Shown here in pieces: positions 13,862 to 58,735 of a DNA stretch of 64,000 nucleotides. The first letter of the stretch is position 1, and the number at the start of each line of letters is the position of its first letter. The notes under the pieces are model-generated. The model saw nothing but the letters and a program-made list of their open reading frames with translations. It searched no databases and was not told where the DNA came from. The translations under genes and the position numbers were made by a program. This stretch comes from Halobacteriales archaeon QS_6_71_20 (GTDB lineage Archaea > Halobacteriota > Halobacteria > Halobacteriales > Haloferacaceae), in the NCBI GenBank assembly GCA_003020945.1, contig PXRU01000017.1, positions 1 through 64,000 on the forward strand. Reading direction: 5' to 3'.

Positions 13862-14797
13862 ATGAGCGCGAACACGACGCCCTCACCGACCGACGACGCC
13901 GACGAGTTCCCGAGCGACTTCCTCGACATCGACGACCTGGCCGCGAGCCAGCTCGCGACGGTGCTGGAGCGAGCCTCGGCGCTCAAGACCGGGAAGGACC
14001 TGACGCAGCTCCCCCGGACGACGCTGGCGATGCTGTTCGAGAAGCCCTCGACTCGGACGCGCGCGAGCTTCGAGACGGGGATGACCCAGCTCGGCGGCCA
14101 CGCGATGTTCCTCGGCCCCGACGACATCCAGCTCGGCCACGGCGAGCCGCCGAAGGACACCGCCCGGGCGCTCTCGGGCTACGCGGACGCGCTGATGGTG
14201 CGGACGTTCGCCCACGAGAACGCGGAGATCCTCGCGGAGCACGCCGACGTACCGGTGATCAACGGCCTCACAGACGACGCCCACCCGTGTCAGACGCTCG
14301 CGGACCTGCTCACAATCCGCGAGGCGGTCGGCGACCTCGACGAGGTGTCGGCGGCGTGGGTCGGCGACGGCAACAACGTCGCCCGCTCGTTCGCCGTCGG
14401 TGCCGCGCTCGCGGGGCTGGACCTCACGGTCGCCACGCCCGACGGCTACGGTCTTGGCAACGACGTGTACGAGCGCTGTGCGAAGGTCGGCACCGAGCCG
14501 ACCGCCGTCGACGACCCCGCGGCGGCGGTCGCCGACGCGGACGTGGTGTACACCGATGTCTGGGTGAGCATGGGCGAGGAGGAGGCGCGCGAGGAGAAAC
14601 TTCCCGCCTTCGACGGCTACCAGGTGAACGAGGCGCTGCTCGACGGCACCAACGCGGCGTTCATGCACTGCCTGCCCGCCCACCGCGGCGAGGAGGTGAC
14701 CGACGCGGTGCTGGAGTCCGAGCGCTCGCTCGTGTGGGAGCAGGCGGAGAACCGGATGCACGCCCAGAAGGGGCTACTGGTCGAGTTGCTGGCGTAG
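13862..14797 (+). CDS. argF: Ornithine carbamoyltransferase
   Basis: Makes citrulline from ornithine and carbamoyl phosphate. Of 311 residues, LFEKPSTRTRASFETGMTQL near 58 contains the carbamoyl-phosphate STRTR motif, INGLTDDAHPCQTLADLLTI near 137 has the HPCQ loop, and FMHCLPAHRGEEVTD near 268 is the ornithine-binding HCLP motif. The N-terminal acidic extension MSANTTPSPTDDADEFPSDF is common in haloarchaea. Last gene of the arginine cluster. A second, slightly diverged copy of its final 57 bases lies 199 bases downstream. Confidence 0.97.
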   Translation: MSANTTPSPTDDADEFPSDFLDIDDLAASQLATVLERASALKTGKDLTQLPRTTLAMLFEKPSTRTRASFETGMTQLGGHAMFLGPDDIQLGHGEPPKDTARALSGYADALMVRTFAHENAEILAEHADVPVINGLTDDAHPCQTLADLLTIREAVGDLDEVSAAWVGDGNNVARSFAVGAALAGLDLTVATPDGYGLGNDVYERCAKVGTEPTAVDDPAAAVADADVVYTDVWVSMGEEEAREEKLPAFDGYQVNEALLDGTNAAFMHCLPAHRGEEVTDAVLESERSLVWEQAENRMHAQKGLLVELLA

Positions 14798-14840
14798 CTG
14801 ACGCGAGCGATACGAGGCCGACCCACGGGAGGCCTCGTCG

Positions 14841-14937
14841 CGAGCGCCTTTTGTCATCGACGGGTTTTGACGGGGTTCGACGAGCGAGCGCGGCAGGGCC
14901 GCGCGAGTGAGGAGGACCCCGTGAAAAGCGGTCGGGT
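14841..14937 (+). repeat. Intergenic hairpin repeat, copy 1
   Basis: Begins CTTTTGTCATCGACGGG and TTTTGACGGGG and ends GACCCCGTGAAAAGCGGT. The two ends pair imperfectly as a long hairpin around a GAGCGAGCGCGGC centre. A second copy lies at 44569-44660 in the opposite orientation, also just downstream of a gene. Confidence 0.75.
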
Positions 14938-14939
14938 TG

Positions 14940-14996
14940 CAGGCGGAGAACCGGATGCACGCTCAGAAGGGGCTGTTAGTGGAGCTGCTGGGGTAG
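14940..14996 (+). pseudogene. Orphan second copy of the argF 3' end
   Basis: Fifty of 57 bases equal argF 14741-14797, including the stop codon. The readable peptide QAENRMHAQKGLLVELL is unchanged, and six of the seven differences are synonymous. The copy therefore descends from a functional, diverged argF allele rather than from a recent local duplication. It has no upstream coding part. Confidence 0.8.
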
Positions 14997-15039: not shown

Positions 15040-17211
15040 CTACGGTTCCGGCGGCGCGCCGTCGTAGGCGTCGCGGTCGGAGAAGAAGTTCAGCATCGCG
15101 AACCGCAGCTTCTCCGGGTCGATGTCGACCAGCTCCTCGCGCTCTTCCGGGGGGAACGCGCCGCGCACGGAGTACTTCCCCATGTCGGCCGCGGTGTAGC
15201 GCTCGTCCAGTAGGACGCGCACGCCGAAATCGTCGGGCGCGCGGATCACCCGCCCGAGCGCCTGGCGGGTCTTGCGGATCGTCGGGATCTCGACGGCGTA
15301 CTCCCAGCCGGCGTCCCGGGAGCGCTCGGCGAACGCGCGGTCGTACGCGTCCTGTACCGCCTCCATCCGCTCGGAGAGGCGGGGGTACGGCACCCCGACG
15401 ACGGCGACGCTGCGGGCGGCGTCGCCGTCGAAGCTCACCCCCTCCGCGAGCGTCCCCCACAGCGAGGTGAACAGCGCGGCGTCGTCGGCGGCGACGAGCC
15501 GGCGACGGAGCGCCTCCGTGTCCGGCTCGGTGCCGTCGAGCAGGAGGTCGCCGAGGTTCGGGTCGCCCGACAGCAGCTCGTGGTAGCGCTCGGCCTCCGC
15601 GTACGACGGGAAGAACAGCAGGCTGTTGCCCGGCGTGAACCGGATCACGTCCGAAAGCGCCGCGGCGATCGTCTCCTGTGTCGCGGGGTCGTCGCGCTCG
15701 GACGCGAACAGCGCCGGCGTCGTCGTCGAGTAGGTGCGACGGTTCCCCTCGGGGTACGCCAGCGGGTACGCCAGCGACACCGGGTCCGACAGCCCGAGCA
15801 CGTCCTCGGTCACGTCGAACGGCCGCAGCGTCGCCGACATGAGCACGCTCGCGTACACCTCCCCGAACAGCTCCTCGGTCACCTCCCGCGGGATGCAGGT
15901 GTACAGCTCCGCGCGGCCGTACACCTCGTCGGTACCGGCGTCGCGGCGGACGGAGACGACCGGGTGCTGTCCCAGCTCGCCGCCGTCGTCCATCCACGCC
16001 GAGACGAACGCGGCCGCCCGGAGCGTCTGACACTCCCGGCGGGTGGTCGCCTCGCCATCGCGGTAGGCGTCCTCGTACTCCTCGTCGAGGCGCTTGCCCA
16101 ACTGGAGCGCGAGGTCGCACTCCGCGCGGATGCCGCTCCCCTCGTAGCGGTCGAGGAACGCGAGCGTGAGGTCGTCCCTGCGGTCCTCGTTGGCGACGCT
16201 CACGTCCTCCCAGTGCTCGCCGACCCGGTCGCGGGCGGCGGCGCCGAGCTTCCCGTCGTACGTCGCCGACAGCGCCTCCGTGAAGGCCCGAAGCACGTTC
16301 TCGGCCGGCGCGGCCCGGGAGTCGTCGCTCTCCTCCAGCTCGGCGAGGGCGGCCTCCAGCGTGTTCTCGGTGAGCGTGCGCGAGGCGTGGTCACGGGCGG
16401 CGTCCTCGATGTTGTGCGCCTCGTCGAACACCGTGATCACGTCCTCCGGGTCGCGGTCGAGCCACCGGAAGAACTGCTCGCGGATCTGCGGGTCCAGCAG
16501 GTGGTGGTAGTTGCACACGACCAGCTCGACGTCCTCCATCCCCTCCTTCAGGAGCTCGTAGCCGCACAGGCCCCGCTCGCCGGCGTACTCGTACACCTCC
16601 TCGGGGCTGCGCACGTCCGAGAACAGCCACGAGAAGAACTCCCCGGTGTCCCGCGTCAGGTTCTGGAGGTAGTGGTCACAGACGTTCCCGGCCTCGTCGT
16701 CGATCTCCTCGTCGAGCCGCTCCAGTTCCTCCTGTACCGCCCGTCTGGCCTCCGCGGCGCTCCCGTCGTCGCCGTCGCGCATCTCGTCGGTGAGGTCGTC
16801 GAGTCGCCGCTCCAGCTGCTCTCTGTCGTCCTCGTCCTCGACGAGCGAGCGCGTGGTGTCCCGGAGCGTCTGGCACTCCTGGTAGTCGACGTCGATGTGG
16901 CACATCGACGCCTTCCCCTTGAACACGGTCGCGCGGATCGGCTCGGTCTCGTTGATCGCGCGGGCGTCCTCGACGAACTGGCGCATCTGCTGGTGGACGT
17001 TCGTCGTGATGACTACGGTGCGGTCGTGCTCGCGGGCGTGCTCCAGGGCGGGCACGAGCGCCGACAGCGTCTTCCCGGTGCCGGGCGCGCCCTCGAACAG
17101 CACGTCCTGGCCGCGCTCCAGCGAGTTGGCCACCCGGTCCATCGCCTCCCGCTGGTTCGGGTACGGCTCCTCGTACGGGAAGAAGCGCAGGTGGCCGTCC
17201 GTCGTCGACAC
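15040..17211 (-). CDS. XPD/Rad3-like ATP-dependent DNA helicase
   Basis: Superfamily 2 helicase expected to unwind DNA 5'-3' in repair. The 723-residue product has Walker A FEGAPGTGKTLSALVPAL near 39, four cysteines spread over MCHIDVDYQEC (104-114), VCDHYL (about 178) and LCGYELL (about 213) that fit the Fe-S cluster domain, DEAHNIEDAARDHASR (motif II) near 260, and C-terminal motifs SLWGTLAEGVSFDGDAAR and ALGRVIRAPDDFGVRVLLD. Between the cysteines is a long acidic coiled segment (EDEDDREQLERRLDDL). Rad3/XPD and DinG-type assignments overlap in this family. Single gene, convergent with argF. Confidence 0.93.
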   Translation of the reverse strand: MSTTDGHLRFFPYEEPYPNQREAMDRVANSLERGQDVLFEGAPGTGKTLSALVPALEHAREHDRTVVITTNVHQQMRQFVEDARAINETEPIRATVFKGKASMCHIDVDYQECQTLRDTTRSLVEDEDDREQLERRLDDLTDEMRDGDDGSAAEARRAVQEELERLDEEIDDEAGNVCDHYLQNLTRDTGEFFSWLFSDVRSPEEVYEYAGERGLCGYELLKEGMEDVELVVCNYHHLLDPQIREQFFRWLDRDPEDVITVFDEAHNIEDAARDHASRTLTENTLEAALAELEESDDSRAAPAENVLRAFTEALSATYDGKLGAAARDRVGEHWEDVSVANEDRRDDLTLAFLDRYEGSGIRAECDLALQLGKRLDEEYEDAYRDGEATTRRECQTLRAAAFVSAWMDDGGELGQHPVVSVRRDAGTDEVYGRAELYTCIPREVTEELFGEVYASVLMSATLRPFDVTEDVLGLSDPVSLAYPLAYPEGNRRTYSTTTPALFASERDDPATQETIAAALSDVIRFTPGNSLLFFPSYAEAERYHELLSGDPNLGDLLLDGTEPDTEALRRRLVAADDAALFTSLWGTLAEGVSFDGDAARSVAVVGVPYPRLSERMEAVQDAYDRAFAERSRDAGWEYAVEIPTIRKTRQALGRVIRAPDDFGVRVLLDERYTAADMGKYSVRGAFPPEEREELVDIDPEKLRFAMLNFFSDRDAYDGAPPEP

Positions 17212-44568: not shown

Positions 44569-44660
44569 ACCGCTTTTCGGACGGGGTTTCCTCGGTCGCT
44601 CGCCGCGCTCGCTCCCTGCGGGAACCCCCGTCGAAAACCCGTTCATGACAAAAGGGCCGC
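44569..44660 (-). repeat. Intergenic hairpin repeat, copy 2
   Basis: On the minus strand it reads CTTTTGTCATGAACGGG, TTTTCGACGGGG ... GAGCGAGCGCGGCGAG ... AAACCCCGTCCGAAAAGCGG, the same layout as 14841-14937. The outer arms pair imperfectly into a long hairpin. It begins four bases after the upstream gene's stop. Confidence 0.75.
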
Positions 44661-55985: not shown

Positions 55986-58735
55986 CTCGTCTCGAACTCG
56001 AAGCGCGCGCCCCCCTCGGCGCTCTCGGCCAGCGTCACCGACCAGCCGTGCGCCTCGGCGATGCGGCGGACGATCGCGAGCCCGAAGCCGGTGCCGTTCT
56101 CCGCGGTGGAGACGCCGACGTCGAACACCTCCTCGCGGTCCGCCTCCGGGATCCCCGGGCCGTCGTCGGAGACGGCGAAGCCGTCGGGGGTGGCCCCGAC
56201 CCGAACCGCGGTCGACTCGCCGCTGTGCTCGACCGCGTTGCGGAAGAGGTTCTCCAGGAGCTCCCTCAGCCGGTCGGGGTCGGCGTCGAGCGTGGCCCCC
56301 TCGACCGCGTCGAGCGTCGCGTCGTCGGTCTCGACGATCGCCCACGCCTCCCGTGCGGCGTCGGCGAGGTCGACCCGCTCCGTCTCGCCGACGACCCGGC
56401 CGTCCCGGGCGAGCCTGAGCAGGTCGTCGATCATCTCGCGCATCCGATCGACCGCGTCGGCGACGGTGTCGAGGTGGTCCAGGTCCCCCGTCTCGCGCGC
56501 GAGGTCCAGGTAGCCGTCCGCGACCGACAGCGGGTTCCGCAGGTCGTGGGAGACGACGCTCGCGAACTCGTCGAGCCGCTCGTTCTGCCGGCGGAGCGCG
56601 CGCTCGCGCTCGCGGCGCTCCGTGATGTCCGAGTAGATCGCGTAGCCGCCGACGTTCTCCTCGCCGACCTCCAGGGGGACGACGTACATCAGGAAGTCGC
56701 GGACGCCGTCGACAGTCTCGCGGCGACACTCCCGGCGCAGGCTCTCGCCGGCGGCGAGGCGGTCGTTGAACTCCGCGGCCATGGACCGCTCGTCCGGGGG
56801 GACGATGTACTCGTCGATCGACTCGCCGACGATCTCCTCGTCGAAGCCGAACGTCTCCTCGAACGCGGAGTTGACCGCCCGCACGACCGGGACGCCGTCG
56901 ACCAGCTCGAAGGAGACGGCCGCGTCGGGGACGTTCTCGAACAGCGCGGACAGGCGGTCACGCTGCGCGCGGAGGTCGCCCTGGGTGCGCAGCCGCTCCA
57001 GCGAGACGGCGACGTGGGCCATCAGCAGTTCCGCGTTCCGCAGGTCGTCGTGGTCGAACGCGGCCCGCTCGGTCGCGACGGCCTGGAACACCCCGAGATC
57101 GCCGACGGGGACCGAGATCGCCGAGCGGTACTCCGACCGGACCGGCTCGGCGTCGCGTTCCTCCGTCAGATCGGCGACGAGCGTCGACTCGCCCGTCCGG
57201 TACGTCCGCCCGGTGATCCCCTCGTCGAGGTCCATCGGGCGGGTGCCCTCCGGCTCGGTGCCCTCGCTGTCCACGACGGGGACGAGCATGTCGCCGCGCC
57301 GCAGCGAGAGCGTGGAGTTGTCGAACGAGAGCACGTCCTCGGCCGCGCGGATCGACCGCTCGATGAGCTCCCCCTCCGTGTCGGCGGCCGCCAGGTCCGC
57401 GGCGGCGACGTGGAGCCGCTCGGTGACCCGTCTGGCCTCCCGGAGCGCCGTCTCCGACAGGATCCGCTGGCGCGTCACCGTCGCGTACGAGACGAGCAGG
57501 TCGGCGAACTCCGGGTCGCGCTCGTCGAACGCGTTCGGCTCGTCCACGACCGCCCGGAACACGGCGTCGCCGGCGAACGGCACCGAGATGAGCGACCGCG
57601 ACTCGCCGTCGTGGGACTCGGCCTCGTCGCTGTCGGCGACGTCGTCGACCACGATCGAGCGGCCGTCCGCGTGCGACCGCTCCATCGCGCCGAACCCCCG
57701 CGTGAGGCTGTCCGGCAGCTCCGGGTCCGTCGTCGCGCGCAGGTGGAAGCCGTCGCCGTCGGCGACGTACACCGCGGTGCGATCGAACGACAGCACCCGG
57801 TCGGATATCTCGACGGTCCGCTCGAACAGCTCGTCGTCGTCCTCGGCGTCGACGAGCCGCGGCGCCGCCTCGTGGAGCTCCGCCATCACCCGCTCGCGCC
57901 GCGTCAGGTCGGCCTGTGCGCGGAGTCGCTCGTACGACTGGCCGACGTGCATCGCGAGCAGCTCCGCCAGCTCCCGGTCGGTGTCGTCGAAGGCGTGCGA
58001 CCGCCGGGAGACGGCTTGGAGGACGGCGTCGTCACCGAACGGCACCGTGATGCTCGAGCCGGTCGCCTCGGAGTTGTCGAACTCCTCGGGATCGAGGTCC
58101 GTGACGTGGACCGTCTCGTCGCGCTCGTGTGCTCGCCCGACCAGCGTCCCCTCGATCGGGACACGCCGGGGGAGCCAGTCGGTCGAGCGCTCCAGCGCCA
58201 CGAACTCCGAACCCTCCCGCACGCCGACCGCGCAGTGGTCGAACGACAGCACCCGGTCCGCGACCGCGACCGCCCGCTCGGACAGCTCCGCCACGCTCTC
58301 GGCGGCCGCGATCCGGGCGGCGGCCTCGTGGAGCCGGGTGACCCGCTCGCGGGCCGCCCGGAGCTGTCGACGCGTCGTACCGTCGTGCGCCCGGTCGATC
58401 TCGACCGCGAGCCGCCCGGCGACCGACCCCCGCTCGACGTAGCCGTCGACGAGGTCGTCGTCCGGCTCGCGGTCGGCGTACGCGACGACCGGAACGGCCC
58501 CGGCCGACAGCCGCTCGCGCAGCGACCCCGGCAGCGTCGGGTCGCCCACCAGCACCACCGCGTCCGGCCGCTCCCCGCGGTCGAACGCCGCCGCCAGTGC
58601 CGCCGGCTCGCCGGCCTCCGTGACGCCTCCGTCGACGGCCTCCACGAGCGCCCCCGTCAGCTCCGTGGCCTCCCGCGGCGCGTCGTCCGTGAGAAGGAAG
58701 ACGAACCGCGACGGCTCGGCGACGGGGTCCGCCAT
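55976..58735 (-). CDS. Multi-sensor histidine kinase (receiver-like, three GAF, PAS, HisKA, HATPase)
   Basis: A soluble 919-residue sensor kinase. Residues 1-115 look like a receiver fold ([40 protein letters not shown]). Three GAF domains follow, seen as repeated [22 protein letters not shown] and [11 protein letters not shown] segments. Next are a PAS domain ([20 protein letters not shown]), the phospho-acceptor [20 protein letters not shown] and the ATPase N and G boxes ([53 protein letters not shown]). No membrane helix. The signal could be redox, light or a small ligand. Its last codons lie in a repeat element. Confidence 0.93.

What the first reader, a model, noticed from the sequence alone, without database searches (positions are those of the whole stretch)
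14741..14996. Second, diverged argF tail downstream of argF with a hairpin element between
The 57-base 3' end of argF, stop included, recurs 199 bases later (50/57). Six of seven differences are synonymous, so the second tail evolved in a functional gene. This is the scar expected if an incoming argF allele with extra DNA replaced the resident gene, or if an element regenerates the 3' end of its target as integrases do. A hairpin repeat fills the gap.
Basis: partly seen in the sequence, partly recalled or inferred. Interest (0 to 1): 0.6.

Follow-up and report, generated by a model that had tools for sequence, protein, structure and literature searches.

The report
Hairpin element that copies gene ends
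The spare argF ending in this salt-loving archaeon is one case of a widespread, apparently undescribed pattern in which a hairpin-forming DNA element sits between a gene's working end and a second copy of that end, probably left behind when gene versions are swapped between strains.

Summary
In detail: 58 nt of the argF 3' end (14740-14797) recur at 14939-14996 (51/58), with two hairpins between. The genome is a Halobaculum (or very near). It is not a one-off scar and there is no sign of an integrase. Two congeners carry the same arrangement and four have the empty site. argF double or triple tails occur in about 11 genera of two families. Nor is it specific to argF. The second hairpin (E, 14847-14934) belongs to a dispersed palindromic element family, up to 52 copies per genome in Haloarculaceae. 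In 17 of 28 and 8 of 17 sampled copies, E lies between two direct copies of the upstream gene's 3' end (control 0/28). In 35 of 37 junctions the second tail starts 0-7 nt, most often 4, after the foot of the E stem; the window has 4. Pooled over 51 tail pairs, codon differences are 114 synonymous to 40 not, too many for a decaying duplicate, so both tails generally evolved in working genes. Best reading: E-anchored, one-sided allele replacement, in which an incoming gene end plus E is joined into the resident gene and its old tail is displaced. The joining step is inferred.

The parts
13862..14797 (+). argF (ornithine carbamoyltransferase), the resident functional gene
   Evidence: ORF and homologs; last gene of an arg cluster
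14740..14797 (+). tail 1: functional 3' end of argF, stop included
   Evidence: direct repeat D1
14802..14846 (+). first hairpin (h) just after the stop, followed by a T run (14849-14852)
   Evidence: DNA fold; sequence
14847..14934 (+). element E: dispersed palindrome with a T run in its left arm and an A run in its right arm; stem foot CGAC 14858-14861 pairs with GTCG 14931-14934
   Evidence: best hit of covariance model R1, trained on copies from the other family only (20.7 bits, E 0.005); fold; foot covariation
14935..14938 (+). 4-nt spacer (GGTT) between the foot of E and tail 2
   Evidence: 4 is also the commonest offset in 37 junctions elsewhere
14939..14996 (+). tail 2: displaced copy of the argF 3' end, stop included, not joined to a gene
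   Evidence: single-tail sister genomes run straight from the tail into the sequence that follows tail 2 in double-tail ones
15040..17211 (-). convergent gene for a DinG/XPD-type helicase, the conserved right neighbour
   Evidence: ORF; 3' end conserved in congeners
44574..44637 (-). another copy of E in the window, not flanked by a tail duplication

Best explanation
The structure is the product of an E-anchored, one-sided allele replacement. A gene end that carries a hairpin terminator plus element E (from a sister chromosome copy or from a related strain) recombines with the resident gene by ordinary homology on its left. On its right it is joined, at the foot of the E stem-loop, into the resident gene roughly 25-110 nt before its stop. 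The resident's last codons are pushed to the far side of E as tail 2. Afterwards tail-tail recombination makes arrays, homogenises the tails, or deletes the insert cleanly. E probably also works as a two-way transcription terminator. Shown here: the fixed right end, the gene-tail identity, the displaced tail leading into native flank, the coding-type divergence, recurrence, empty sites. Inferred: that the joined end is made by breakage at the hairpin foot, that joining is illegitimate, and the terminator function.
For: Fixed joint: 35 of 37 junctions lie 0-7 nt from the E foot, 16 of them at exactly 4. Foot bases covary (CGAC/GTCG 13, GAAC/GTTC 13, GAAC/ATTC 1, no other pairing), so the joint is the base of a hairpin. 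Association: tails flank E in 17/28, 8/17 and, in family f1, 5/30 copies; controls 0/28 and 0/30. In 800 kb of one genome the coding-gene tail duplications that were not paralogs or internal repeats all had E between them. Coding-type divergence: 114 synonymous v 40 nonsynonymous, p 3e-15 against tail 1 constrained plus tail 2 neutral. Swapped alleles at nuoI in G149 and G172, with tail 2 of G172 leading into the native flank of G108. Empty sites: G007 v G010 at argF. Several different junctions at the same gene (argF; nuoI) mean repeated origin. Gene conversion in polyploid haloarchaea (PMC8223754) and clean deletion between direct repeats (PMC3119063) are known.
Against: No donor chromosome was identified for any event. 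In many loci both tails are identical, which a plain target duplication also predicts. In the window the argF body shows no foreign stretch, and neither tail clearly matches one lineage. Some argF arrays in Haloarculaceae end with a further E after the last tail, as a tandem duplication would. A nearly constant 4-nt offset looks more like an enzyme than like random end joining. Many junctions are shared within a genus, so the number of independent events is much smaller than the number of loci. Some frames were assigned wrongly and loci are not independent.
Confidence: 0.45

Rival explanations
1. E (with the hairpin before it) is a non-autonomous mobile element that inserts near gene 3' ends and makes an unusually long target duplication of 25-120 bp; the missing enzyme acts in trans. 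Later divergence comes from exchange of the gene part with other lineages.
For: Dispersed family with sharp ends, empty sites, tails 100% identical in some loci, nearly constant 4-nt offset.
Against: Tails differ as functional alleles do. Duplication length varies widely, no transposase link was found, and copies between convergent genes show no duplication. Classic transposons do not make such duplications.
Confidence: 0.3
2. Tandem duplication in place: replication or repair stalls at the E palindrome and switches back into the gene end, doubling [tail + hairpin + E]; the last E is often lost later.
For: Regular arrays, e.g. ten 171-bp units; several argF arrays end with an E.
Against: In other loci the last tail runs straight into native flank with no E (hisH in G129, nuoI in G172 v G108). 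Excess of synonymous change. E copies in one array can have different interiors (G054).
Confidence: 0.2
3. Attachment-site scar of a tyrosine-integrase element at the argF 3' end.
For: The 3' end of a gene is kept intact and repeated downstream, as integrases do.
Against: No integrase on the contig, no island between argF tails in 392 genomes, the repeat differs for each gene.
Confidence: 0.03

Closest known systems
Small mobile repeats, PATEs and MITEs of Haloquadratum (PMC3119063)
   Same: short, dispersed, palindromic or inverted-repeat ended, no transposase, present/absent between close strains; repeat-mediated clean deletion described there
   Different: SMRs and PATEs have no target duplication, and MITE duplications follow their transposase; none is described as flanked by 25-110 nt gene ends
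REP / BIME-type extragenic palindromes of bacteria
   Same: dispersed intergenic palindromes at gene ends, terminator-like, in tandem groups
   Different: not known to duplicate the end of the neighbouring gene; no REP-type (Y1) transposase tested or linked here
Homology-facilitated illegitimate recombination (PMC3240628)
   Same: one end by homology, other end joined illegitimately, can leave duplicated resident sequence
   Different: described in bacteria; here the joint is fixed at the foot of one element family
Tyrosine-integrase insertion at gene 3' ends
   Same: the gene's 3' end is kept intact and a second copy lies downstream
   Different: no integrase, no island, gene-specific tails, insert of 100-200 bp

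Membership tests
tyrosine-integrase att site | integrase gene in or next to the insert | tested here: not met
   Phage_integrase hits only on contigs C2, C4, C9, C16, C22; window is C17
tyrosine-integrase att site | one conserved core shared by insertions | tested here: not met
   duplicated segment is the tail of whichever gene lies upstream
element family E (defined here) | covariance model trained on other family's copies finds it | tested here: met
   window 14847-14934 is best hit, E 0.005
element family E (defined here) | ends of the element pair with each other | tested here: met
   fold; CGAC/GTCG v GAAC/GTTC covariation
MITE / IS-derived repeat | short fixed target duplication and termini of a known IS | tested here: inconclusive
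   duplications are long and variable; termini were not compared with an IS library
known structured RNA | match to an Rfam family | tested here: not met
   no match up to E 1
archaeal T-stretch terminator | T run downstream of the gene, termination at it | tested here: inconclusive
   T runs present on both strands; T stretch is the intergenic terminator in Haloferax (PMC7237163); no transcript data here
homology-facilitated illegitimate recombination | donor and recipient alleles differ on the homologous side and at the joint | tested here: inconclusive
   tails differ like alleles but no donor was identified

The most novel reading that the evidence does not exclude
E is a new kind of recombination element: a terminator palindrome whose foot is cut or joined by a dedicated activity (most common offset 4 nt), so that gene ends with E are swapped into homologous genes of other strains, a gene-end exchange system of haloarchaea.
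Probability: 0.25. Interest if true: 0.8.

Novelty: new variant of a known kind. Interest (0 to 1): 0.6.

Why it matters
A short element that sits at gene ends in most haloarchaeal genomes sampled is tied, at a nearly fixed distance, to duplication of the neighbouring gene's last codons. That gives a readable record of allele replacement in organisms known for exchange between species, and a concrete hairpin joint whose enzymology can be tested. It also warns annotators that orphan gene tails here are not pseudogenes of lost paralogs.

Tried and rejected
Integrase/att site: rejected. argF-specific effect: rejected after the scan of 800 kb of G242 and the E-anchored samples. Foreign argF in the window: third-position divergence along argF shows no foreign 3' end. 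Simple neutral duplicate: rejected by the synonymous excess. Rfam: nothing. Whether tail duplication goes only with non-convergent neighbours: dup loci have both orientations (24 v 20), non-dup mostly convergent, so this is a tendency only. Two tRNA 3'-end duplications in G242 have no recognisable E and were set aside. The search for E by strict text pattern found too few copies and was replaced by profiles. A first script for stem-foot pairing matched the wrong closing bases and was redone. Literature searches found no description of the pattern; most subscription journals are not in that library.

Full report
OBSERVATION. The repeat is real: 14740-14797 and 14939-14996, 51/58 identical, 199 apart. 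It is the strongest direct repeat with spacing 60-600 in the window. argF runs 13862-14797 and the right neighbour is a convergent DinG/XPD-type helicase gene ending at 15040. Between the tails are two hairpins; the whole 147 nt folds as DNA far better than shuffles (z -3.8). The stem of the second hairpin runs exactly from 14858 to 14934.

WHERE IT COMES FROM. The window's genome (G000) groups with ten others in one genus. One of these, G005, has an argF contig of the same length and position as Halobaculum saliterrae NZ_WUUS01000011.1, so the genus is Halobaculum by inference. G288 matches Haloarcula japonica NZ_AOLY01000005.1 in the same way.

SISTERS. G003 and G010 also have tail, hairpin, element, tail, with a homologous element. 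G005, G006, G007 and G008 have one tail followed at once by the downstream sequence. G007 is the closest relative of G010 at argF (5% apart) and its tail leads into exactly the sequence that follows tail 2 in G010, so it is an empty site. It could be original or the result of clean deletion between the tails.

NOT A ONE-OFF. A degenerate pattern for the argF C-terminus found 18 of 392 genomes of the order with two or three close tails, spacing 130-427; G003 and G405 add to these. They fall in about eleven genera of two families. The sequences between them share a plan: hairpin with T run, then a palindrome of the type CCCACGTTTTTGCG...CGnGAAAAAGGTGG, called E here, then the second tail. At least six different junctions occur at argF.

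NOT SPECIFIC TO ARGF. A scan of 800 kb of G242 for direct repeats found the same structure at nuoI and at a third gene, both with E between the copies. A covariance model of E from 12 Haloarculaceae copies hits 36 of 37 genomes of that family, 1-52 copies each. The best copy of each of 28 genomes was examined: 17 lie between two direct copies of the upstream gene's 3' end, against 0 of 28 with the downstream sequence reversed as control. Of 17 further copies taken down the list, 8 are so flanked; the other 9 abut the stop of a convergent gene. In the window's own family 5 of 30 are flanked with the second copy 0-4 nt from E. Genes hit include argF, nuoI, pheT, hisH and a cysteine desulfurase (names from their C-terminal sequences, not tested further). 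One locus has ten identical 171-bp units.

THE WINDOW'S ELEMENT IS ONE OF THEM. The model, trained on the other family only, has its best hit in the window at 14847-14934, full length, E 0.005; the next hit is the dispersed copy at 44574-44637. Halobaculum copies elsewhere (31 loci examined) show no tail duplication apart from argF.

THE JOINT. In 35 of 37 junctions the second tail starts 0-7 nt after the right end of E; offset 4 is the commonest (16). The window has 4 nt, GGTT. The right end is the foot of the stem: in Halobaculum copies CGAC always goes with GTCG (13) and GAAC with GTTC (13) or ATTC (1). The left border of the duplicated gene piece varies from locus to locus.

HOW THE TAILS DIFFER. 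Over 51 tail pairs there are 114 synonymous and 40 nonsynonymous codon differences. Random mutation predicts 27% synonymous; a constrained tail 1 with a freely decaying tail 2 predicts 43%; observed 74%, p 3e-15. Pairs are not independent and a few frames are wrong, which mostly adds nonsynonymous noise. At nuoI in one genus, G149 has allele type A in tail 1 and B in tail 2, while G172 has B in tail 1 and A in tail 2; tail 2 of G172 leads into the flank of the empty-site species G108. So tails have been exchanged between lineages. For the window itself the numbers are small (5 synonymous, 1 not) and argF shows no foreign block.

MECHANISM. The joint at a hairpin foot, the displaced native tail and the allele-like divergence fit one-sided replacement: homology on the gene side and joining of the E foot into the resident gene. 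Haloarchaea are polyploid with active gene conversion between chromosome copies (PMC8223754), recombine between species (PMC4500145), and delete cleanly between direct repeats (PMC3119063), which would explain identical tails, arrays and empty sites. Insertion with a long target duplication and in-place tandem duplication remain as rivals. An integrase is not supported. T runs on both strands and position between convergent stops suggest that E is a two-way terminator; T stretches terminate in Haloferax (PMC7237163), but this was not tested for E.

NOVELTY. No Rfam family matches and no paper found in the searched library describes gene-end duplication tied to such an element. The nearest described things are small mobile repeats of Haloquadratum, which have no target duplication.

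Noticed in passing
L264 (G405:C1:2702900-2706200): Ten identical 171-bp units of gene tail + hairpin + E in a row, ending with a slightly different tail without E.
   Followed up: partly
L097 (G172:C1:142850-145300): Downstream of the argF double tail lie genes that look like a toxin-antitoxin pair and then a longer argF 3' fragment followed by another E: layered remnants of argF.
   Followed up: no
L099 (G231:C1:880070-882500): The E at argF has its interior in inverted orientation compared with other copies while its feet are in place.
   Followed up: no
G242:C1:280257-280294 and 1391207-1391341 (in L208 and L231): Two tRNA 3' ends are duplicated 131 and 227 bases downstream without a recognisable E.
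   Followed up: no
L285 (G155) and L291 (G254): Truncated or decayed second argF tails after E, so the count of double tails by pattern is a lower bound.
   Followed up: partly
window 57783-57878: Weak direct repeat of 96 nt with spacing 456, probably within a coding region.
   Followed up: no
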